Shown piece after piece: positions 13,901-57,623 of a DNA stretch of 60,504 nt. The position numbers were made by a program, and so were the translations under genes. The first letter of the stretch is position 1, and each line of letters begins with the position of its first letter. Under the pieces are notes generated by a model. It worked only from the letters and a program-made list of their open reading frames with translations. It was not told where the DNA came from and did not search any database. Origin of the DNA: a virus; IMG/VR virus record IMGVR_UViG_3300023210_000036, positions 1 through 60,504 of that record; one strand, 5' to 3'.

Positions 13901-14349
13901 GACATATCTACCCATGTTCCATCTTCATTTTGAAATAATGTAGGAAAAGAAAACCAATTACCTTTACCGTCTGTTTCTGTTCTCATTATATGAGTAGACT
14001 CCCCAACTACATTACCTTCTTTATCATAATTTAATCTAACTCCCTTTCGTTTAGGGACTTCCCGACCTGCTTGAGCCATTGGTACTTCAAATACTTGATC
14101 ACCAGGAAATTGATAGTTATTACCCGGAGTCATTAATTTTCTATTACCTAAGTTATCAGTTCCTATTACCGGAAAGTCTACACCCTCCATGGTAATATTA
14201 CCTGAGTTAATAATATTGTATGGATTATTTACATCTGGACTATCTGCCTTGTACCCCTCTAAGGAATAAAAATCAGAAAAGTTTGTTATATATTCATTTG
14301 GGCCGCCCTTTAGACCAATGCTTTTTTTGTTATTTGAGTAATTTGCCAT
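7924..14349 (-). CDS. Multidomain envelope-degrading virion polyprotein, 2141 aa
   Basis: Probable virion-carried entry protein with several hydrolase-like modules. In order: 1-195 unknown; zincin-like module with HEVLH at 672-676 and SDPMEQNAR at 759-767; second zincin-like module with HEISH at 993-997 and SDPTEVRAR at 1067-1075; lysozyme-like module with candidate catalytic Glu1212 (FHESGAQQ) and GPGRGVFQFE after it; two peptidoglycan-binding half-repeats, each with DGxxGxRT (1533-1540, 1598-1605); Cys/His peptidase-like module with C1640/C1645, H1748 and H1765; second lysozyme-like module with Glu1873 (GVETGGG). C1640 and C1645 are the only cysteines, which favours a functional role. Copies of a GG-LP-AQ motif separate the modules (193-204, 497-508, 856-868, 1139-1145, 1353-1364; a short form at 91-95). 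The gene overlaps the muzzle stop (TAATG). Domain names rest on motifs only. Confidence 0.85.
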   Translation of the reverse strand: MANYSNNKKSIGLKGGPNEYITNFSDFYSLEGYKADSPDVNNPYNIINSGNITMEGVDFPVIGTDNLGNRKLMTPGNNYQFPGDQVFEVPMAQAGREVPKRKGVRLNYDKEGNVVGESTHIMRTETDGKGNWFSFPTLFQNEDGTWVDMSISLEEPWEPVYQEALKRGEVIDFGTNKEAAIKFGEGSWKKKLRRGGSLPRAQEGFELNQTSANPFIYGDWAEISRSVNPTTGATTIIDERTGNRDVEYSKRGVNWKVGYENWLAAGNKGSLADFKIEAERWKKSQTKNETDVQNRERTEPGDEASITGDFYGSGIGNTKVPAGPNGTTIPNVSIDQYGFDGSGIPANGSYDYTGAQGNTTIQPLIPRPATLIDQPEIPFSSQYPGGLISPRGGVLPDSHVDSTSSYEVNSKKKNNGNEKLKQTFLEDTTVTNEDGYSNMNIKSVNNGNRERLKQEFNIYDKEDNLLATQVDKTNFFGNPKTKIRVTDEGEAAGFGLKYGGSLPEAQLGAFLKAGVKKLPKYVDDIAKYIDDGAKYVDDYFNPSVSEFTTEGLENATYRMGRNETGNLTRSQLDDVVTKRKAWVNSDEYIKRRGTQLRETDKFKNASDADIAKYINDDVKSMENAFDQIVVKFNKDLETQGIYSGKNITIKTPDGSGVGYSPNLDTYLDVFDHEVLHAFQTKFGSSNTELLDAMYDIAKGKLAKGESIESIQKALKQKAVSMEDISSGFHKGQRHMTTPINSELKNTPMSGYGNRFEYLSDPMEQNARHIMAIENLVSKYGYNYGKVTDDLLSKFSDDVINGQNKFGVDDLFRNLGDDAGNILKPGSKGWKDAVRPILENAWMFPAAGVGAVLANERDGGEQLPQAQIGKGLDYVSGLDGNVIMHEDEALQNANQKNLDSAKDFAGKWMNSPRYLEMLNNSGGSEWWNRAGDVQRGRISNFNELQDAPLYISNDPNQYYSEKALSGIAGYSESDTGKIYVKPKSGGRAPTLYDHEISHSIDRPADNFLLTDIVQFYARGMDPEGRLIPNNDIDLMGNLIDPTLDIGKTLSFWESYGDTPEEGTRNYYSDPTEVRARLNEIRKDMKVNGVDVFNKEITYDDMPTSRVKAFRDLKRLYSEESILQMLNTISDTGTLPDADTLPVAQGGVEVGPKEAPEGYKWNGKSLVPNDWSEFHDEVDKSLLDFNNILAYVSESRGGTEEFWGNTADTVAFHESGAQQRMDRLAKQISQNEDGSLFDGPGRGVFQFEGPSLETAQTRYKNIARAKGFTLDPEIINATSADLLPMDKQYTLFFANLIESDATLSDYSDGKMEQVDLWLQGHKNIEKPGDRASFQESVDEAKKKGITGGYKSFKKRYGGSLPKAQDGSEFYPFDGGYESGNDPNPYPFPYGVPVDPDTDNDADIVEEEVDITQLSPLDINLLQPPIISIQDGTNLNSPILTDHLGRDINDLSPEDLEAFHQELNFNYEQDQRDQELIDQEYIDPNQIAGFVTNANQRGQNYERGFEDFTERSAEDVQLMQGDLLERGYDIGPTGADGIYGQRTHDAYSSMIADAGLEESAISRYDKKYNPETYTEVKAIQTKLIEKGFLPEITEAGKSNIDGKFGERTKMALLDYNTSKAEEEEDVEGLIFDTIPTTLEDERCAAGMCQILELNDIETEAIGVKYKDAWDLLESMKHVGNSAVQFNIYDDSLFDNVDENTSISELKNLTAKAKRKHQTTASNYKVGDIVGIYWPGSDHHLETLNSETHNTHSGFVSSIDENGTPIITHNVGGTIRNVPYNEVATAWISRPNENIKLTATYAEQIDPDDIALSQTDSALIDNFENKIERSLTDEERKIVSNIMQRANYNSKHIPEILNSSIDQEWLNAAIFGITGVETGGGINAPRTRDDLSVTRALAHMWENTKDADISLGVGKTKYNSLDNFARNYFEINSPADLADDNKAVDAVSYMLVKNYELFKNYAQQYPTLGLAEEDVRNMTLLSYNQGVSKLLTTGRNDENTRNSEEELAALRELYEGSMADISSTNYSRIPGGESLYDAALVLGYETPSEKYISKTNRYITEVYGGSDEYNDMLLATNITNSNTPPVLAKGGEYGVFKNYVNGDYNNTPRDKSSEKVFDKLNRRHYKEAKALGMSPSNYIMSHLVG

Positions 14350-17300
14350 TATCTAAGGGATGTAAGTAATTTAGTATTATTTAATCTTAATAACATCTTT
14401 CTATTATCAGAATCCATTTTACGCAATATTACATTAGTGAAGTAGTGTCTAAACTTTTTATGTTGTAATGGGGATTTTAAATAGTTTAAATTAATAAAGT
14501 TTAAATTTTTAATATACCCATTAGGTTCAGTATCCCATATAGGTTGCTCAACATTGGTAAATTCTCCTCTATCATTTGTAATATCCCAAAATTGATTAAA
14601 TCTATATTTCTGTTCTACTTTAGAACATAAGATATTAATATTGTTTCCATTAATTATAGGATAGGTTAATTCTAAAATGGGGTTATTAAATGGAGTGGGA
14701 GTTAATTGCAATAACCCTGATACCTGCTCATTATTGTAGATGACCGATTGATCAAAATTAAAGTTTAGATCTTCCCATTTATCATCACCGCACAAAAACC
14801 CAGGATCATTTTTATATACATATGCTTCCATCTGATATTCCATACTTCGTACAGTGTTGACTGTTTGCCCTGTATTAGCCACTAATTCTATTTCCCATGG
14901 ATATTGTATATTATAAAAATTAGCATAACTATCACATCTAGCATTATGTCTCCATAGTGTACCCGCATTATAGTTGGCGGGCACAGAATCATAATAAAAA
15001 TAATTGCATAATGGAGGATCAGGATTAACCCAATTAGGGTCCCCTATAGCAAATAATCCTGGTGCAGAATCTGGGCAAGTTCCAGTTACTGTTGTTGTTG
15101 AATTAGGAATAGTAGATTCAGGACAACCGCATATAACTTGTCTACATATGGGGGGTCTTTCATATTTGCATGGACCATCCTCATCGGTGTATAAATTTGT
15201 TAATTGGTTTGGGTATACTAATGTATAACCAGTGGGACACGCACATGCAATGGGTTCAGAACAGACACCACTTGCTATTTCTTCTGCTGCAGCATCTATT
15301 CCAGCGCTTACGTTAGCACTCATTGTAAGCTGGTATGGACCCGGTGTTCCTGTACTTGTATCATATGTAGTGTTAGAAATATTATTCATTACTACAGCAC
15401 TTGGGGGAGTGCTGGATGTTGCACCACAATATATTGCATATATTTCTTGTTTACGCTGATCAACAGCTATATTAGCAGGTGAACTTTGTAAATTATTTTC
15501 AGCCCACTCACCTGTATTTTGAGCTTGGGGTGTACCTGCTGTTGCATTTGGAGTTTGAAATTTATTTACATTGTTTTCTGCTAGTCCATTTGTTCCATCT
15601 GTTACAACAATTAAAATTTGCTTAAAAGATGCATTTTCTTGTCTAGTTGGATATTGAGATGCAAAACTTGAATTTGCTTTATCATTTAATTGTGCTAAAC
15701 CACCTTGCCCTGATGTTGGACTTGCTGTACCAATTGCCGCCACCACACTAGTGGTGCCACCAGCCCATGCGCCAGTATACCAATTGCATGCCTCTTCTGG
15801 TAAAACTGTATTAGTCATTGATTTATTACCAGGTTGCATCCATCTTACACCACTACCAGACCACCCTTGAAATCCAACTTGCATAGTTCCTGCAGACATT
15901 GCCCCACTAATTGATGTATTATTTAAAAATACATGTAACCAACGTAATTGAGCTGATGCACGGGTTACCATTGGTGCTGCTATAGAACCAGTAACACAAT
16001 TAATAGTCGGAATACCTGTACTTCCTGACCAATCCATTGCAATTACAATATCTAATTTGCAATTTTCTCCTCCACCAGTTATTGTAGAAACTATATCACT
16101 TACATCTATGGTTGCGTTTGCTGTTGTATTTACGGCTTGTTCACATAATCCAGTATCAGGATTAAAATTATATCCCGGAGGACACAGAGGTGTATCCGTA
16201 AGTATAGTCTTAGTAGTAAAAAAGTGATTTATACTTGGTATAGAAAATTCAGGATGCCAATCATGAAAAGATATCCATGCTTTAGCTTTTGGATCATAAC
16301 TAATAGTCCAAGATGCGTCATCAAAATAAATAGGGTCTCCTAAAATTATAGGAATCTTTCCATGAGCTGTCTCTAACATAAAGCCTGTTAAAGCACCGTA
16401 TGTTATCATATCAATCCATTCACTCTTTACTCTATAATCCTTCTTCATAAAGTAGGCAATGTCATCATTCGGATCATATATAGATTGACATCCCACACCT
16501 ACTACCGCATTATCTGATAATTTAGAATATTCTAATTCGGGGTACTGCTTAATTAATTGTGATGGTAGATACTTATTAAACCACCACTTCATTCCTTTAT
16601 TAGATATAGGATCTAAACCTTGACCAGCATAATGGAAAATCTTTCCTTGTGCTTGCGAGATATAAAATATTCCCATTGGTGTATTCATAACTCCTCTTAA
16701 ACTTTCACATGAACCATATTCATTTGAAAGATCTGAGTTAGTTATATTCTGAAAGGGTTGGCTAAACAATCCTCCATCACCTATAGTTATTTTAGTATCT
16801 AATCCTGTTTTAAGAGTATCTAAACCCTGAAACATTTGTGGAGATAAGTACGGGAAAAATACTATTGCTCCACTTTTATTAATAGGTTTAATAATACTTA
16901 CTTTATTTTTAAAGTCTTTATAATTAAAATTTAAGAAAACTCTCCAGTAATCTTTTTTAGATTCATGTTGTGCCTGTAGCGAATATATAAGTCTTTTAGG
17001 ACGACTGACATAACAGTTGGCTGCTACATAAGGATCATAATATCTGGGCTGTACTTGTCCAAATGAAGTTATTTGACTTGTTAATTTAGAAGGACTTAAT
17101 GATTCATCATACTTATAAAAGTTATCTATTTTTTCTATTTGAGCATGAAATAATTCTGTTAAATCATTATACTCATATATATTATATATTCTTTTTGCTG
17201 CTGTATCTTCCCAATCTCTATGAGCTAAATTTATTTCTGACTCAACAAAGAAATCTAAAATACCATTTGAATGACTATACATATACGCATATCTCATTGC

Positions 17301-20300
17301 AAATGCAGGATTAGGATCACTACTATTAAATACAGTACCTATAGAAAAGCCTCCGCAACTTTGACTACCCCTATCTAAATAAAATAAATCATTGGGAAAC
17401 ATGGAGTTTAATGCTCCTGTACTTAGAATACCAAACGAAGCAATTTTAGTAGCTAATTCAGTCATATCAAATCTTAGAGAATTTAACCAAAATCTTGGAT
17501 AGGGTATATTTACATGATTTGAATAGTCATAAGTAAACTCATCTGGCTGACCCAGTAAATACTGAGAAAAAATAGGCATTATTACTTTTTCAGTATACCT
17601 ATTAATAAATATATCTCCTGCAAAAATTGCACCCGATGAATTCATGAGTTCATCTGGTTTAGTAGGATCTAAATAATTTACACAACCCCTCATAGGTATT
17701 TGTTTTATACCATCAAGTTGTCCGTATTGATTATCAAAATTAAATTTAAGTGCTCCATAATAAGCAGAAATAGGTTGTTTTTTAGATATAGAAGGGTCTA
17801 ATAGATAATTGGCAGAATAAGGAGTTGTTGTTCCATTTGCATTTACATGACCTCCTACAGTAAATCTTGATGTATCTTGTTGAGAAGGTTCATCAATTGG
17901 AGTATCTAATGATACAGCAACTGTACTTGGTCTAAATAAATTATTAATTTTATATTTTCCGCTATCAAAAGATTGAAAAGATTGGCCTATATAGTTTGAG
18001 TCACGATTTTTAATTCTCCATAATCCTGTGTTTCTTTTCCTAAAATCAGTAAACTGACCAGTTGAATTATATTTTAGTACAAAATCTCTCTTCTCAATTA
18101 AATTATATAATAAATCTATTATCTCATTACCTCCAATTGCAATATTTGTTGATGTAGATAATATACTTAAACCAGCTTTTAATAGGGTGGGTAATTGTGA
18201 AAAGCTTGTTGTTTGATTATTAACAATTGTAAATTCACCAGAATGTGTAGCTGGAGAAGCAACATATCCACTGTTTGCAATACCCGAATAATATCCGTCT
18301 AAAAGCCCTAGAGCAAGACCACCCCCCCATAAATCTGCTAAAGCGGCAGCATTATCCGCATTATCATATATATTTATAGCTGCTTGCATAGTTGCTGCTC
18401 CTGCAGCTGCTCCTGCAGCATCTGATACATAATTAGCACCCACAGCTCCGGCACTCGCCCCTATTCCAGCAACAAAAGAGCCAAAGTACCAATCACTTGC
18501 TCCTTTTATTCCATAGCCACCTGAAGTTTGAGTACTTCCCGATTCACCCCTAACTTGTTTTATAGCATAACCTACACCAATAGCTGCAGCAATTATAGCA
18601 GAACCAGATCTTAATAATTTAAATTGAGGGTGATCTTCAGATGCTTTAAATGATCCAGTTTGATATCCGCTTAAATCACCATAAATTCTTGTTTCATAAG
18701 CATTTAGAAATGGTTTAGTAAACATTAAATCAGGAGAAGAAAAAGTAAATGCTTCTTTTGAATAACCCGTTTGTACTCCATCAACAATACCAAAAAATCC
18801 TAAAGGTTTAAAGTTATTTATAGATTGAGCTAAATTATTACATCCTTCTGTTCTATTTAATTCAACATCATCATCATCATCAAATGTTCCGTCATGAAAA
18901 TACATGTCAGGTCTTAAATCATTATAGGGATAGTTGGGATATAATCCTTGCACTGATCCTCCTATTAAATTTTCTGAATCTGGAACAGTATATTTTCTCA
19001 TATTTCTAAATAGCCCTTTTGCTAAAATAGATTTTGCACCACCTCTTGATCCTCTTAAGATTTCATACCCAACAACATTAGTGATATATGTTCCATCGTT
19101 ATTTGTTGGTTGACCTATATTTGTAAATTCAACACCTAGAAGATTTATTGAATCCCCACTGGTAGTACTTATATGTAATGCTGAATTGGGTCCAAAACCA
19201 CCTCCATCTTCTGCAGGCATCTTATGGTGTCTAATAGGTTTACCACATAAATCCCCCCATATATCAGGTCTATTAATAGGATATTTTTCTGTAGATTCCC
19301 AATAACCCATCTTTCCTTTTGCAATTATAGAACTTCCATCAGGTTGTGTAAGGTTTGGCTCTGAGGTTATTACTCCAGTATTATATACTTTAAATAATGG
19401 GTCTCCACCAGGCTCTATAACATTTGCTCCCCAAATAATTTCATTCTCCATTGTCATATTACCATTATCTTCTTGGAAAAGCTCTGCTTCTCTGCCGGGT
19501 ATATGATATGAACTTGATCTTTCTCCTGTATTATATATCCACCTTATGAAAAAGGCGTATTGTTCATCTCTTAAAAACCCCAACTTATTTCCTCCTAAGT
19601 GATAGTATTCTGAAGATATTTGGTTAACAACGAAATTTGTTTTAATATTATTTGCAATAGGCTGATAATTAAAATCAAACTGTTCTACAGGTCCTTGTCT
19701 AAGAAGCCAATCATTAACAACATACATTGCTTCTGATTTTTCATATGCAGGACTTCTCTTGGGGATTACTTTTAAATCTACTGATACTAATGAATCATCT
19801 AAATAATCAATGTTAATGTCTTTACGTTGAGTACTGTATAACCCCACACGTTTAGCATATGTTTGCCCTTGATTCCTTACTAGTAGAGCAAGCTCAAAAT
19901 TTTCAAAATTTAAATCTAAATTTGAAATAGATATATTTAATGAGTTTTTTGTTCCTTCATGACTCCATAAAGTTTGTACATTTGAGATACCTATGTAGTC
20001 TGTTACCCGTTGTTCATTTTCTGTATATGCAATAAAGGCTTGATAAGAACCATTCATTAACATACCACCATCAATTGATTTAGTTAACTCAACACAAGGT
20101 GTGTCCACTAAAGGAGCCAATCTTATTTTTTCACAATTTAATTGTAATGGTTCAAAGTCACTATAGACTATGCAAGGATCTCCATCAGGTGAACTTATAT
20201 ATTGTATATATGGTATATCATCTATATTTAAACTTCTAGAAGGATTATTGGAATCATCCCAGTATACTTGCCATGTACAATCAAAGTTTTCTTTTGCAGC

Positions 20301-20675
20301 ACCAGTAATAAGAAATTCTTTATTAAACGCTAAACATGTGTCATTAACTAAAGTAGTATACTTACACTCACTATCATCAAACCTTCCTATTTCTGAACTA
20401 AAATTATCAGTGGAAAATATTATCCACTCATCACCATATCTATGTATGGCACCAATAACTGTGTAGGGTATAACCCCGCATTGTAAATTAGCAGGTTCAT
20501 TACCTATTACACCCATATCACCATCATTGGAATTATTGGCAGCATTACGTGCATGCCACCAACTTTGATTTGGTTCCATAGCTTGCGTAATATCCTTATT
20601 CATTCCTTTTATGAACGAATTAGTAACTACAGAGGTTGTGCCCTTTTGGTTATTTGGTGCTTTTTGTTTTGCCAT
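14349..20675 (-). CDS. Muzzle-type tail protein with inserted vWA domain, 2108 aa
   Basis: Likely the large distal tail ('muzzle') protein of a crAss-like virion. The start matches the family pattern I know: SFIKGMNKDI then WWHARNAANNSNDGDMGVIGNE. The typical late block WISFHDWHPEFSIPSINHFF is at about 1467-1486. Right after it, residues about 1500-1835 hold a Cys-bounded insert (CPPGYNFNPDTGLC ... CPTGYTLVYP) containing a von Willebrand A domain: MIDAS DxSxS is D1548-W-S-G-S1552 and the later acidic site is D1693 (VVTDGTNG). Ala/Gly-rich segments at 690-770 could be hydrophobic hairpins. There are many cysteines throughout, unlike the cargo proteins downstream. The gene is preceded by two ring/connector-type genes, as expected for this family. 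The vWA domain could bind a host surface ligand or metal; that is inference. Confidence 0.85.
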   Translation of the reverse strand: MAKQKAPNNQKGTTSVVTNSFIKGMNKDITQAMEPNQSWWHARNAANNSNDGDMGVIGNEPANLQCGVIPYTVIGAIHRYGDEWIIFSTDNFSSEIGRFDDSECKYTTLVNDTCLAFNKEFLITGAAKENFDCTWQVYWDDSNNPSRSLNIDDIPYIQYISSPDGDPCIVYSDFEPLQLNCEKIRLAPLVDTPCVELTKSIDGGMLMNGSYQAFIAYTENEQRVTDYIGISNVQTLWSHEGTKNSLNISISNLDLNFENFELALLVRNQGQTYAKRVGLYSTQRKDINIDYLDDSLVSVDLKVIPKRSPAYEKSEAMYVVNDWLLRQGPVEQFDFNYQPIANNIKTNFVVNQISSEYYHLGGNKLGFLRDEQYAFFIRWIYNTGERSSSYHIPGREAELFQEDNGNMTMENEIIWGANVIEPGGDPLFKVYNTGVITSEPNLTQPDGSSIIAKGKMGYWESTEKYPINRPDIWGDLCGKPIRHHKMPAEDGGGFGPNSALHISTTSGDSINLLGVEFTNIGQPTNNDGTYITNVVGYEILRGSRGGAKSILAKGLFRNMRKYTVPDSENLIGGSVQGLYPNYPYNDLRPDMYFHDGTFDDDDDVELNRTEGCNNLAQSINNFKPLGFFGIVDGVQTGYSKEAFTFSSPDLMFTKPFLNAYETRIYGDLSGYQTGSFKASEDHPQFKLLRSGSAIIAAAIGVGYAIKQVRGESGSTQTSGGYGIKGASDWYFGSFVAGIGASAGAVGANYVSDAAGAAAGAATMQAAINIYDNADNAAALADLWGGGLALGLLDGYYSGIANSGYVASPATHSGEFTIVNNQTTSFSQLPTLLKAGLSILSTSTNIAIGGNEIIDLLYNLIEKRDFVLKYNSTGQFTDFRKRNTGLWRIKNRDSNYIGQSFQSFDSGKYKINNLFRPSTVAVSLDTPIDEPSQQDTSRFTVGGHVNANGTTTPYSANYLLDPSISKKQPISAYYGALKFNFDNQYGQLDGIKQIPMRGCVNYLDPTKPDELMNSSGAIFAGDIFINRYTEKVIMPIFSQYLLGQPDEFTYDYSNHVNIPYPRFWLNSLRFDMTELATKIASFGILSTGALNSMFPNDLFYLDRGSQSCGGFSIGTVFNSSDPNPAFAMRYAYMYSHSNGILDFFVESEINLAHRDWEDTAAKRIYNIYEYNDLTELFHAQIEKIDNFYKYDESLSPSKLTSQITSFGQVQPRYYDPYVAANCYVSRPKRLIYSLQAQHESKKDYWRVFLNFNYKDFKNKVSIIKPINKSGAIVFFPYLSPQMFQGLDTLKTGLDTKITIGDGGLFSQPFQNITNSDLSNEYGSCESLRGVMNTPMGIFYISQAQGKIFHYAGQGLDPISNKGMKWWFNKYLPSQLIKQYPELEYSKLSDNAVVGVGCQSIYDPNDDIAYFMKKDYRVKSEWIDMITYGALTGFMLETAHGKIPIILGDPIYFDDASWTISYDPKAKAWISFHDWHPEFSIPSINHFFTTKTILTDTPLCPPGYNFNPDTGLCEQAVNTTANATIDVSDIVSTITGGGENCKLDIVIAMDWSGSTGIPTINCVTGSIAAPMVTRASAQLRWLHVFLNNTSISGAMSAGTMQVGFQGWSGSGVRWMQPGNKSMTNTVLPEEACNWYTGAWAGGTTSVVAAIGTASPTSGQGGLAQLNDKANSSFASQYPTRQENASFKQILIVVTDGTNGLAENNVNKFQTPNATAGTPQAQNTGEWAENNLQSSPANIAVDQRKQEIYAIYCGATSSTPPSAVVMNNISNTTYDTSTGTPGPYQLTMSANVSAGIDAAAEEIASGVCSEPIACACPTGYTLVYPNQLTNLYTDEDGPCKYERPPICRQVICGCPESTIPNSTTTVTGTCPDSAPGLFAIGDPNWVNPDPPLCNYFYYDSVPANYNAGTLWRHNARCDSYANFYNIQYPWEIELVANTGQTVNTVRSMEYQMEAYVYKNDPGFLCGDDKWEDLNFNFDQSVIYNNEQVSGLLQLTPTPFNNPILELTYPIINGNNINILCSKVEQKYRFNQFWDITNDRGEFTNVEQPIWDTEPNGYIKNLNFINLNYLKSPLQHKKFRHYFTNVILRKMDSDNRKMLLRLNNTKLLTSLR

Positions 20676-24903: not shown

Positions 24904-27120
24904 TTAAGGGGTTGGGCCGCAGGCATTTGTTATTTGAGAAATAACTGATGTTGTATCATAATTTACAGTATAAGTACCACCAGTAGCTGTAGCCAACGTT
25001 CTCCAAGGATAGGTTGTTGTTCCTCCACTCGGTGTATATGGTTTATCAACTCCTTGACCTAATATAAAGACTTTAATTCCATTGGAAGCGCATGTTATAG
25101 CTAATGAATTTAGTCTAGTTACATCTGTAGCAGTAAACGCATCATCATCACCGCTTGGTAAATCATCAGTATAGATCAATACGTACTTTGCCACACCCGT
25201 TCTAAATGCTCCAAGTAATTGGTTAGATTCTACAATTAATCCAAGAGCCATATCTGTTGGTTCTGGGAAACCAGATCCCGCTCCTAAAGGCCAACCAGCT
25301 GTTGGAGAACCTGTATTAAGTTTAGCTAATTGTGTTTCAAAAGATGTTTGGTTATTAGTTTGGAACATCTCTACTGCAGTAATAAACTGATAATCAGATG
25401 ATCCTGTATTTATAATTCTTTGTGCTGATGGTAATGCTAAGTAATCAGTTGATGTAACATATGTCGGTGTAGATGAAGAGCTCTCATCAGCTAAGGCTAA
25501 TCCTAATCTATAGTCATTAGTTCCTGATTGAGTTATAATTTCAGCAATAATATCAGATATCCCAGTTTTAACACCGTTAACAACAGTACCCATACTAAAT
25601 GTATAGTCTAATAAAAATACTACATCTAGCCCAGAATTACATGCAGCTGCAGCAGTAGTAGTAGCAAACGTTGTTTGATTTGGACATATTTTTGTAGCAC
25701 CGTTCATAACAACAGTTATTCTAATGTTATATGTAGTATTAGGAGTTAATCCAGTAAATACATGTGATGGAGTTGCTCCAGGATTGCTTATTGTGGTTGT
25801 ATCAACTAATACACCTGTTAATGCATTAAGTATATCAATTGTATATGTTGCTGTTAAACCAAGTAAATTATTAAAGCCAACAGTTGCCGAAGTAGAAGTT
25901 AGTGATGTCACATTAACATTTGCTGGACAAGGTAATAAACCGTTGATAACTGTTGATTGATTTTCATTACATCTATTTTCACTTGTACTATCTGTTACAC
26001 AAAATGCAACTAAAACAGTTAAGTTTTGTTGAGTATTTAATGTATTCACTGCTAATGTAACTCCAGATGCATTATTCTGAAGTGAACTAACACTTACCGT
26101 ACTAGTTACTGAAAGTCCAGCAGCATCGGTTATTGTGATTACTGTTGATCCTGCACAATCATTAAATGATGCGGGAATACTACTTGTTTGAAAGTTAAAA
26201 GTTACACTTGCTATTTCTCCATTTGTATCCAGATTATTACTTGTACTATATCCAAATATTACTGCATCACATCCAGAAGGACAGCAGTTTAATTGTATGG
26301 AGGCTATAGCCGTATACATATCATCTATAACTACCCATGCATTTTGTACAGATTGTGCAAGATTAACAGGAGAACTATTCCAACCACCAATACTACCATA
26401 GTCACTTCCTGGATTAGTTAATTGAGAAGTTGCTGAAACAATAAAGCTTTGTTGAATAGTCAACAAGATTGCTGCAGGTAAACCTACTGCTGTCTCTAAT
26501 GTACAGAACCGAGCCTCTAAAGCAAGTAGTAATACAGATACATTTGTTAGGACAGCGGGCATTACACAAGTGGGTATAACTTGTGTTTCAACTACAGCAC
26601 CAGAACAAGGTAAAACGCATGCTTCTAAAATTACTAATCTTCCGGTAATATTTGTAAGAGCCGAGTTAAGAGTATTTATGCTTGATAGGTTAGTACACAC
26701 TTGATTAGCAATAAGTGTGGCAAATAAATCTAAACGTAACTCTGTTACAGGATTTCCACTAGCATCGTTGTACTGCAAACATGCAGGTAATGTCATTATA
26801 GGCAATTCAGTTTGTGGTGCAACTGAATTTGAGTTTGCACATATCTGAACAACCATGGATTGTAAGACAGGTACTAAAGTAGTTGGTGTTAATCCGGCTA
26901 TATTTAAACAAGTTAAATCTAGACCTGTAAGATTTGGATTAGCAGTAACACCACTAGTTATTAATGTGCATACTTCAGTAGCTAATTTATATACTACCTC
27001 TGTTACAGTATCGCCTGAACATAGATCTATACATGCAATATCGGGACCTTGCCATACAACACAATTTGATGATATATTATCACATCCATTTGTTGATATG
27101 CTTGAACTAGTTGGAATCAT
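24904..27120 (-). CDS. Virion adhesin: FN3 plus von Willebrand A domain, 738 aa
   Basis: Residues 1-290 are a Cys-containing fibre-base region (SNCVVWQGPDIACIDLC near the start) of a kind I know from crAss-like fibre genes. Residues 398-488 are a fibronectin III-like domain (PCPANVNVTSLTSTSATVGF; TGLTPNTTYNIRI). Residues 497-735 form a von Willebrand A domain: MIDAS-like DxTxS at D505-Y-T-F-S509, with D652 in YTDDLPSGDDD and a final LATATGGTYTVN strand. The middle MIDAS residue is Thr where most family members have Ser. The domain probably binds a protein or sugar ligand through a metal ion. A strong promoter-like element lies 37 nt before the ATG, so this gene probably begins a two-gene adhesin unit. 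Confidence 0.8.
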   Translation of the reverse strand: MIPTSSSISTNGCDNISSNCVVWQGPDIACIDLCSGDTVTEVVYKLATEVCTLITSGVTANPNLTGLDLTCLNIAGLTPTTLVPVLQSMVVQICANSNSVAPQTELPIMTLPACLQYNDASGNPVTELRLDLFATLIANQVCTNLSSINTLNSALTNITGRLVILEACVLPCSGAVVETQVIPTCVMPAVLTNVSVLLLALEARFCTLETAVGLPAAILLTIQQSFIVSATSQLTNPGSDYGSIGGWNSSPVNLAQSVQNAWVVIDDMYTAIASIQLNCCPSGCDAVIFGYSTSNNLDTNGEIASVTFNFQTSSIPASFNDCAGSTVITITDAAGLSVTSTVSVSSLQNNASGVTLAVNTLNTQQNLTVLVAFCVTDSTSENRCNENQSTVINGLLPCPANVNVTSLTSTSATVGFNNLLGLTATYTIDILNALTGVLVDTTTISNPGATPSHVFTGLTPNTTYNIRITVVMNGATKICPNQTTFATTTAAAACNSGLDVVFLLDYTFSMGTVVNGVKTGISDIIAEIITQSGTNDYRLGLALADESSSSTPTYVTSTDYLALPSAQRIINTGSSDYQFITAVEMFQTNNQTSFETQLAKLNTGSPTAGWPLGAGSGFPEPTDMALGLIVESNQLLGAFRTGVAKYVLIYTDDLPSGDDDAFTATDVTRLNSLAITCASNGIKVFILGQGVDKPYTPSGGTTTYPWRTLATATGGTYTVNYDTTSVISQITNACGPTP

Positions 27121-56180: not shown

Positions 56181-57623
56181 TTATCTGAATACGGTTAGAC
56201 TCCCCGATTCATTAATTACTTCTGGCGAGTTAGACCTTCTTCCCACCACCGAATAATAGTATACACCGTCTTGAACATAATAGCCACCATCATTTATACT
56301 TCCATCCCAAAATGGGTATGAATCGAAGGAGCTCCCATAACCCTGATAGATTTTAACACCCCATCTATTAAATATATTGAATTCAACATCAACCCAACAA
56401 TTCACTTCATATACGATTTTCCATACATCGTTTATCCCGTCATTGTTAGGTGTAAATACATTGGGGATCCATATTGCTTCACATAAGTCATAAATACAAT
56501 CCCCATTATCTATAACTGCTGCTTCATTGTAATTAGTTGCTAGGCTATCTGTACATCCTTCTAAATACAAAACATATTCACAGCTACCATCATCTATAGT
56601 TGCAAGTGGATTATAATTAGTGGCAAAGGAATCAGTGCACCCTAATATATCATACAAACAGCTTCCGTCATCTATGGTGGCTAAGGGGTTATAATTGTTC
56701 GCCTCTGAATCCATACATCCATCAGTAGGGGGACATAGATTGATTAATTCTATTATTTGGTTCTCTGGGGCATTCCCAATAAACTGCCCGGCATTATTAA
56801 AATTATATACAGTTAAAACTAACTCACAGTTCTCACCACTATTAATAGAGTCTAATATAGATTCTAAAAGAGTATTTAAACTTGGGCTATTTAAATCTAT
56901 AGTGAGAGCATCACTAGAAGCATATATGTCTTGACCTCCTATACTAATATTAATAGAGTTGCCACCGAAATTAAAATTTAATACAAACCCAAAAATAAAA
57001 GGATCCTCATAGGGATATTGCGCCCACCAACTTGGGCTCCCTATGTTTGGGCAATAGGTGGAATGTGGGATTAAAGTTATCTCTCCAGTCCCTAAATCAA
57101 AGTCCACTAATTCTATATTACAACCATCATTACAGAAATTATCTCCATTAGGATTAAGACACCCATCACTTAGAGGTTCATCCCACCAAGTCCCATCATT
57201 GTTTAAAACCCATTGAAAGCATTCTCCATTGGATTCTAAAGCAAGTTTAAAAAATGATATATAAGAAGTTCCGGTCCATCCCCCATAAGGTGTCCAGTTT
57301 CCTGGAACATTTGCTGGTAGGGGAATATCAAATATGGGTGTGGAGATATATCTTGAACCACCCGCAGGAATGGGTAATATACCTAAACTAAAATCCCAGA
57401 CAGGACCCGAAATAAATCCTGATAGTGTCCAATCCATATATAGAGATCCTCCCGTGTATGGTACGATATCATCATTTTGAATTTCAAATGCAAACGAGAT
57501 ACCCGGATTATGATCGATTACTTGAGTTGATCCAGGGGATATATAAACATCACACTGAGCAGAACTAGTATAAGCCAGAAAAGATATTGCTACAATTAAT
57601 ACACTCCTAAGTATACTTAACAT
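56181..57623 (-). CDS. Secreted protein with T9SS C-terminal domain, 480 aa
   Basis: Residues 1-22 are a Sec signal peptide (MLSILRSVLIVAISFLAYTS, cleavage likely after Ala22). Residues 25-300 are a beta-rich ectodomain I do not recognise, with several Cys. Three tandem 21-residue repeats follow (303-323, 328-348, 356-376), each of the type GCTDS-A-NYN-AT-DDGSC, as in many Bacteroidota surface proteins. Residues about 381-480 are a gliding-motility-type C-terminal sorting domain (CHU_C, type IX secretion): IPNVFTPNNDGINDVW, FNIFNRWGVKIYQ, WDGS and DGVYYYSVVG. The product should be carried across the outer membrane and attached to the cell surface. It is not a usual virion gene; superinfection exclusion, biofilm or lysis-time functions are possible. 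It is the second gene of the first minus-strand unit. Confidence 0.88.
   Translation of the reverse strand: MLSILRSVLIVAISFLAYTSSAQCDVYISPGSTQVIDHNPGISFAFEIQNDDIVPYTGGSLYMDWTLSGFISGPVWDFSLGILPIPAGGSRYISTPIFDIPLPANVPGNWTPYGGWTGTSYISFFKLALESNGECFQWVLNNDGTWWDEPLSDGCLNPNGDNFCNDGCNIELVDFDLGTGEITLIPHSTYCPNIGSPSWWAQYPYEDPFIFGFVLNFNFGGNSINISIGGQDIYASSDALTIDLNSPSLNTLLESILDSINSGENCELVLTVYNFNNAGQFIGNAPENQIIELINLCPPTDGCMDSEANNYNPLATIDDGSCLYDILGCTDSFATNYNPLATIDDGSCEYVLYLEGCTDSLATNYNEAAVIDNGDCIYDLCEAIWIPNVFTPNNDGINDVWKIVYEVNCWVDVEFNIFNRWGVKIYQGYGSSFDSYPFWDGSINDGGYYVQDGVYYYSVVGRRSNSPEVINESGSLTVFR

What the first reader, a model, noticed from the sequence alone, without database searches (positions are those of the whole stretch)
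15250..16180. von Willebrand A domain inserted into the muzzle protein
Residues about 1500-1835 carry a Cys-bounded insert with an intact MIDAS (D1548-x-S1550-x-S1552, D1693) right after the conserved FHDWHPEF...INHFF block. Muzzle proteins as I know them do not have this domain. It may act as a metal-dependent receptor-binding device on the tail.
Basis: partly seen in the sequence, partly recalled or inferred. Interest (0 to 1): 0.7.

Follow-up and report, generated by a model that had tools for sequence, protein, structure and literature searches.

The report
Swappable adhesion domain on phage tail
The tail-tip (muzzle) protein of this crAss-like virus carries a metal-binding adhesion domain of the integrin type on a loop where relatives delete it, double it or swap it for other domains, and the rim of its metal site evolves unusually fast, as expected of a part that grips a changing receptor on the bacterial host.

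Summary
Residues 1539-1805 (window 15261-16061, - strand) of the 2108-aa crAss-like muzzle are a genuine von Willebrand A (vWA) domain. The evidence is family profile hits to integrin I domains, AlphaFold pLDDT 90, and Z 17.2 to the integrin alpha-M I domain. The full MIDAS (D1548, S1550, S1552, T1642, D1693) is kept in 51-53 of 53 relatives.

It is not unique to this virus: 62 of 78 distinct clade muzzles carry a vWA in this slot. Nor is it core: four outgroup muzzles (phicrAss001, phi4:1, csAssE-Sib, Lbo-JY46) have a short loop there, and in the clade the slot holds no insert, only the Cys-rich stalk, one or two vWAs, a PA14-like domain, or other domains. One near relative lacks exactly the vWA (669 nt, in frame), and alleles are exchanged between lineages.

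In recent pairs, loops on the MIDAS face have pN/pS 1.15, against 0.37 for the rest of the domain and 0.19 for the muzzle core.

Best reading: a modular, metal-dependent receptor-binding domain on the tail tip. It sits in the C-terminal propeller region, so the build recalls an integrin alpha head. Receptor binding is inferred; the ligand is unknown.

The parts
14349..20675 (-). muzzle (tail-tip) protein, 2108 aa
   Evidence: PF25731 1e-24; between a ring-1-like gene (PF24228, just below its cut-off) and further genes; 78 relatives
14955..16211 (-). slot B insert, residues 1489-1907: Cys-rich stalk plus vWA plus Cys-rich stalk, replacing a loop of about 11-18 aa in muzzles without it
   Evidence: alignment with Lbo-JY46, csAssE-Sib, phi4:1, phicrAss001
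15261..16061 (-). vWA domain, residues 1539-1805, bounded by C1539 and C1805
   Evidence: family HMM i-E 1e-70, AlphaFold2 pLDDT 90, Z 17.2 to integrin alpha-M I domain
16020..16034 (-). MIDAS loop 1, D1548-x-S1550-x-S1552
   Evidence: 53, 53 and 52 of 53 members
15750..15752 (-). MIDAS loop 2, T1642
   Evidence: 52 of 53 members
15597..15602 (-). MIDAS loop 3, T1692-D1693
   Evidence: 52 and 51 of 53 members
16143..16184 (-). N-terminal Cys hairpin CPPGYNFNPDTGLC, residues 1498-1511
   Evidence: both Cys and the PPG nearly invariant; kept in members that have lost the vWA
15006..15245 (-). C-terminal Cys-rich stalk, residues 1811-1890
   Evidence: near-invariant Cys; pN/pS of linkers 0.12
16326..16433 (-). 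slot A, residues 1415-1450: second insertion site, small in the window, carrying an extra vWA in L062, L064, L092, L094 and L213

Best explanation
The insert is a modular vWA (integrin I-type) adhesion domain displayed on the tail tip of an environmental crAss-like phage. A loop of the C-terminal beta-propeller region of the muzzle is extended into a disulfide-stapled stalk (CPPGY hairpin before, Cys-rich module after) with the vWA at its end. [Shown: fold, position in sequence, conserved stalk. Inferred: propeller placement, disulfides, distal orientation.] The MIDAS holds a divalent metal that coordinates an acidic group or glycan of a host surface molecule, while the variable loops around it set specificity. 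[Shown: MIDAS conservation, hypervariable rim. Inferred: metal and ligand.] Six copies per virion would give avid binding next to the channel after the fibres have made first contact. [Hexamer from phicrAss001; order inferred.] Host receptor change drives rapid loop change, allele exchange between lineages, loss and replacement by other domains. [Shown as sequence pattern; cause inferred.]
For: Fold and MIDAS. Absent from four outgroup muzzles. Slot turnover on a core-only tree: vWA needs 10 changes, at least 7 forced by well-supported branches; all states together 14. Precise loss: L045 is collinear with L022 at about 88% DNA identity but lacks 669 nt covering exactly the vWA, in frame. Exchange: L012/L013 core 99%, vWA 60%; L012/L019 core 79%, vWA 92%; DNA identity breaks near the 5' vWA border. 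Two or more vWAs: L134 in tandem, L062/L064/L092 in both slots. Replacement: PA14-like in L052, L074, L075, L146, L158; PA14-like plus vWA in L076. Diversifying pattern in 8 recent pairs: pN/pS MIDAS-face loops 1.15, rest of vWA 0.37, Cys linkers 0.12, core 0.19; N:S odds ratio top loops vs core 4.5, p 7e-16. Synonymous divergence is about equal in vWA and core for most pairs, so substitution, not recombination, explains these. MIDAS-face loops vs opposite-face loops 0.264 vs 0.152 differences per site in 15 disjoint pairs, higher in 13 of 15. The tail-tip location of the muzzle is from PMC10172136.
Against: No ligand, metal or binding was tested. The phage has a separate candidate fibre gene (S74 and BppL_N domains), so the vWA need not be the main receptor-binding part. 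Members without it (L045, L016, L077) evidently persist, so it is not essential. A few members have a degenerate MIDAS (L036, L047, and the vWA next to the first insert in L134 and L076). The loop faces were assigned from canonical vWA topology and DSSP, not from coordinates; site tests treat sites as independent. Exact placement on the muzzle is inferred from a remote alignment.
Confidence: 0.75

Rival explanations
1. The vWA is an assembly or docking module that binds another virion protein (fibre, neighbouring muzzle or cargo), with the metal site used inside the particle.
For: vWA domains serve in virion assembly elsewhere: a MoxR-vWA pair in jumbo phages and the tail of Acidianus two-tailed virus, as stated in PMC7824862.
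Against: An internal contact should be conserved, yet the MIDAS-face loops change fastest; the domain is lost cleanly, duplicated, and replaced by unrelated folds in one slot. No MoxR-type partner was seen in the window scans made, though not every ORF was scanned.
Confidence: 0.1
2. The slot carries general adhesion domains for particles, algal glycans or mucus rather than the cell receptor, keeping phage near hosts.
For: The same slot takes PA14-like domains, often glycan-binding (weak Pfam and PDB support); relatives come from metagenome contigs.
Against: An abiotic or constant ligand would not obviously drive pN/pS above 1 at the MIDAS rim and allele exchange between close lineages.
Confidence: 0.13
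3. A neutral or relic insertion: a permissive loop picks up domains by recombination without function.
For: Repeated gain, loss and swap; persistence without it.
Against: MIDAS residues 51-53 of 53 conserved at 35-40% overall identity; pN/pS 0.37 in the scaffold of the domain and 0.12 in the stalk shows purifying selection.
Confidence: 0.02

Closest known systems
phicrAss001 muzzle gp44 (PDB 7QOK, 7QOL)
   Same: Same protein family and position; the context model matches 7qol_P and 7qok_A. PMC10172136 already notes length variation by insertions in the crass and IG2 domains.
   Different: gp44 has a short loop at slot B and no vWA; the insertion here is in the C-terminal propeller region, not in the crass or IG2 domain (inferred).
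Integrin alpha subunits with an I domain (alpha-L, alpha-M, alpha-X)
   Same: MIDAS-bearing vWA inserted in a beta-propeller; VIA-align rows 5e6s, 4nen and 5es4 extend over model 349-836, propeller plus I domain.
   Different: Large rmsd over both domains (33-41 A), different insertion point, no FG-GAP repeats by Pfam, no beta subunit; likely convergent.
Bacterial pilus-tip adhesins with vWA: SpaC, PitA, Mfa5, PilY1, S. sanguinis PilB
   Same: MIDAS vWA on a surface appendage used for adhesion; SpaC and PitA are top Foldseek hits, Mfa5 Z 16.6; PilY1 and PilB from PMC11891296 and PMC8179133 abstracts and own knowledge.
   Different: Those are bacterial pili that bind a substrate or animal host; here the domain is on a virus that attacks bacteria.
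Receptor-binding domain catalogue of extracellular contractile injection systems (PMC12923769)
   Same: VWA domains associated with tail-fibre proteins of phage-derived devices, with inferred domain swapping.
   Different: Fibres of contractile systems, not the podovirus muzzle that also gates ejection.

Membership tests
vWA / integrin I domain superfamily | Rossmann-type vWA fold | tested here: met
   pLDDT 90.4; Z 17.2, 186 residues, 2.7 A to 1mf7
vWA / integrin I domain superfamily | complete MIDAS DxSxS...T...D | tested here: met
   D1548, S1550, S1552, T1642, D1693; 51-53 of 53 relatives; geometry in 3D not measured
vWA / integrin I domain superfamily | binds a divalent metal and a ligand through it | not testable with these tools
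   needs purified protein
Crassvirales muzzle family | match to crAss_MUZ above the curated cut-off | tested here: met
   87.3 bits against cut-off 27
Crassvirales muzzle family | crAss-like genome context (capsid, portal, terminase, ring proteins) | tested here: met
   Crass_capsid 1.1e-30; phrog portal 4e-85; terminase 3e-62; CrAss_Ring_1 1.2e-5, slightly under its cut-off
Integrin alpha subunit | FG-GAP type seven-bladed propeller | tested here: not met
   Pfam scan of the whole protein at E 0.05 finds only crAss_MUZ
Integrin alpha subunit | I domain inserted in the propeller | tested here: inconclusive
   insertion lies in the region aligned to the C-terminal propeller of phicrAss001; the propeller part of the model has pLDDT about 50-85
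Phage receptor-binding protein | direct binding to a host surface molecule | not testable with these tools
   only indirect: diversifying rim, swapping, dispensability
PA14 domain (alternative occupant of the slot) | match to PA14 above the curated cut-off | tested here: not met
   L076 17.2 bits against 24 (E 0.0045), L075 13.3 bits; profile to a PDB PA14 protein E 0.12; so called PA14-like only

The most novel reading that the evidence does not exclude
The muzzle is a convergent viral integrin head: a MIDAS vWA set in the gated beta-propeller, so that ligand capture by the vWA pulls through its last helix and Cys-stapled stalk on the propeller and helps open the muzzle gate, coupling receptor recognition to ejection.
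Probability: 0.12. Interest if true: 0.88.

Novelty: new variant of a known kind. Interest (0 to 1): 0.7.

Why it matters
The muzzle is regarded as the conserved gatekeeper of crAss-like virions, with recognition thought to lie mostly in fibres and in the crass domain. Here a whole clade uses one loop of it as a plug-in site for adhesion domains, with evidence of an arms race at the metal-site rim. That gives a testable handle on receptor choice in viruses whose receptors are largely unknown, and suggests that the integrin-type combination of MIDAS vWA and propeller arose in a phage tail as well.

Tried and rejected
Single-sequence searches fail: Pfam on the insert, PDB phmmer, and tblastn of a family vWA in GenBank phages found no vWA match; a family profile was needed. 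Considered and dropped: the Cys modules as true EGF (cEGF, CBM_14 and Kunitz hits are weak and short). The inserts of L053/L072 and L213 were not identified. The phi4:1 slot A insert (DTTSM...LLLAFIDES) looks like a degenerate vWA by eye but no search supports it. Full-context AlphaFold of residues 972-2108 was poor before about residue 1327, so the propeller position rests on alignment, a Foldseek match to 7QOL/7QOK and published domain limits; VIA-align did not list the muzzle among its best 50 rows, which says nothing against it. Host by genome search: the only bacterial hit is a 114.7-kb contig in a Pseudomonadales MAG, about the length of the longest viral contigs found here and most likely a binned virus. 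Papers holding both crAss-like and von Willebrand: none in the open library; subscription papers are not held. One tool call failed on a wrong frame and was repeated.

Full report
WHAT WAS CLAIMED AND WHAT IS THERE. The window is a 60,504-base viral record with crAss-like capsid, portal, terminase and ring genes. ORF 14349-20675(-) encodes the 2108-aa muzzle (PF25731 1e-24). The vWA proper is residues 1539-1805; the insert with its Cys-rich stalk runs from about 1489 to 1907.

IS IT REALLY A vWA? A single-sequence Pfam scan finds nothing, so the claim needed family evidence. Seventy-eight related loci were fetched from viral contigs; 54 slot sequences were aligned (A1). Members of A1 hit PF00092 and PF13519 (best 2e-7); the profile hits integrin alpha-1 and alpha-2 I domains and mussel PTMP1 in the PDB. 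AlphaFold2 on A1 gives mean pLDDT 90.4. Foldseek finds 173 PDB matches at E 0.001 or better, led by the pilus adhesins SpaC and PitA. VIA-align gives Z 17.2 over 186 residues at 2.7 A to the integrin alpha-M I domain, covering residues 55-328 of the model. The five MIDAS positions are kept in 51-53 of 53 members at 35-40% typical identity of the domain.

WHERE IT SITS. In Lbo-JY46, csAssE-Sib and phi4:1 the slot is a loop of 11-17 residues between the equivalents of INHFF and WRHN. In phicrAss001 the corresponding stretch is about residues 1215-1236, beyond the IG2/crass block that ends at 1021, so in the C-terminal propeller region; a profile alignment reaches residue 1202, ending at slot A (weak), and the context model matches the phicrAss001 muzzle by Foldseek (7qol_P, 7qok_A). 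By eye both slots fall at the tip of a blade's middle hairpin in neighbouring blades; with canonical propeller geometry that is the face from which IG1 is inserted, the distal side. This last step is inference. In one search some integrin alpha chains align over propeller plus I domain (model 349-836); the rmsd is large, so this shows the same kind of parts, not the same arrangement.

HOT SPOT. Among 78 distinct muzzles of the clade, slot B holds: vWA in 62 (one with two in tandem, L134; one PA14-like plus vWA, L076; one of the type otherwise seen in slot A, L149); PA14-like alone in 4, plus L052 that was left off the tree; another unidentified domain in L053/L072; unidentified inserts in L213 and L160; only the Cys-rich stalk in 6; no insert in L077 and L229. 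Slot A, between KKDY and the FDDASWT strand just upstream of the HDWHPE block, carries a further vWA in L062, L064, L092, L094 and L213 (Pfam VWA 8.8e-6 for L062). On a tree of the core alone, the vWA label needs 10 changes, 7 forced by well-supported branches. Direction is given only by the outgroups, which all lack it; their branches are long.

TURNOVER AT DNA LEVEL. L045 and L022 are collinear at about 88% DNA identity before and after a 669-nt in-frame gap that removes the vWA and leaves the stalk. L012 and L013 are 99% identical in core but 60% in vWA, with synonymous divergence 0.87 against 0.18, and DNA identity breaks near the 5' border of the domain. L012 and L019 are 79% in core but 92% in vWA. 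So the domain is exchanged. The window's own vWA is only 40% identical to that of its nearest core relative L034 (86%), and closest to L027 (52%).

DIVERSIFYING RIM. In eight recent pairs pooled, pN/pS is 1.15 in loops on the MIDAS face (most MIDAS residues included), 0.37 in the rest of the vWA, 0.12 in the Cys linkers and 0.19 in the muzzle core; pS is similar in core and vWA (0.089-0.093), so the excess is amino-acid change, not imported sequence. Across 15 disjoint pairs, MIDAS-face loops differ at 0.264 per site, opposite-face loops at 0.152, helices 0.170, strands 0.138. Caveats: Nei-Gojobori counts by my own script, loop faces assigned from topology, sites treated as independent.

MECHANISM. 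Invariant metal ligands within a fast-changing rim, on a dispensable and exchangeable domain of a tail-tip protein, are what one expects of a metal-dependent receptor-binding domain. Bacteria use vWA in the same way on pilus tips (SpaC, PitA, Mfa5; PilY1 and PilB by PMC11891296 and PMC8179133), and eCIS tail-fibre families are associated with VWA domains (PMC12923769). The muzzle also gates the channel (PMC10172136), so coupling of binding to gate opening is possible but untested; I put it at 0.12.

NOVELTY. PMC10172136 noted surface variation by insertions in the crass and IG2 domains, without naming vWA in the passages read. No open paper pairs crAss-like with von Willebrand; no GenBank phage in the set encodes this vWA. 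I rate it a new variant of a known kind: modular receptor-binding domains on tails are known; a vWA plug-in site in the gated muzzle, with this pattern of selection, was not found described.

Noticed in passing
window 56181-57623 (-): 480-aa protein with an N-terminal signal-like stretch (MLSILRSVLIVAISFLAYTSSAQ), Cys/Asp repeats (GCMDSEANNYNPLATIDDGSC and similar) and a C-terminal CHU_C type IX secretion signal (PF13585, 8.6e-15). A phage gene product apparently addressed to the host's type IX secretion system; it also points to a Bacteroidota host.
   Followed up: partly
window muzzle residues about 690-860 (about 18096-18608, - strand): Gly/Ala-rich hydrophobic stretch in the muzzle that is the second hot spot of amino-acid change between close relatives (pN 0.154 at 720-779); could be a membrane-active segment.
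   Followed up: no
L087 (Cellulophaga phage phi4:1) 8269-9126: 286-aa insert at slot A of the phi4:1 muzzle, which by eye resembles a vWA with a degenerate MIDAS; Pfam and PDB sequence searches find nothing.
   Followed up: partly
L085 (Leptolyngbya phage Lbo-JY46): The nearest named relative of the window muzzle is a phage recorded on a cyanobacterium, although crAss-like phages are known from Bacteroidota; the host record may deserve a check.
   Followed up: no
window 24904-27120 (-): 738-aa protein among the tail genes with an fn3 domain (2.5e-6).
   Followed up: no
L237 (WLWP01000004.1): 114.7-kb contig in a Pseudomonadales MAG that carries this muzzle family; probably a viral genome binned with the bacterium.
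   Followed up: no
L047, L134 (second vWA), L076: A sub-branch of slot vWAs has lost the canonical MIDAS (QADDST... and HVTG instead of TD), possibly a metal-independent version.
   Followed up: no
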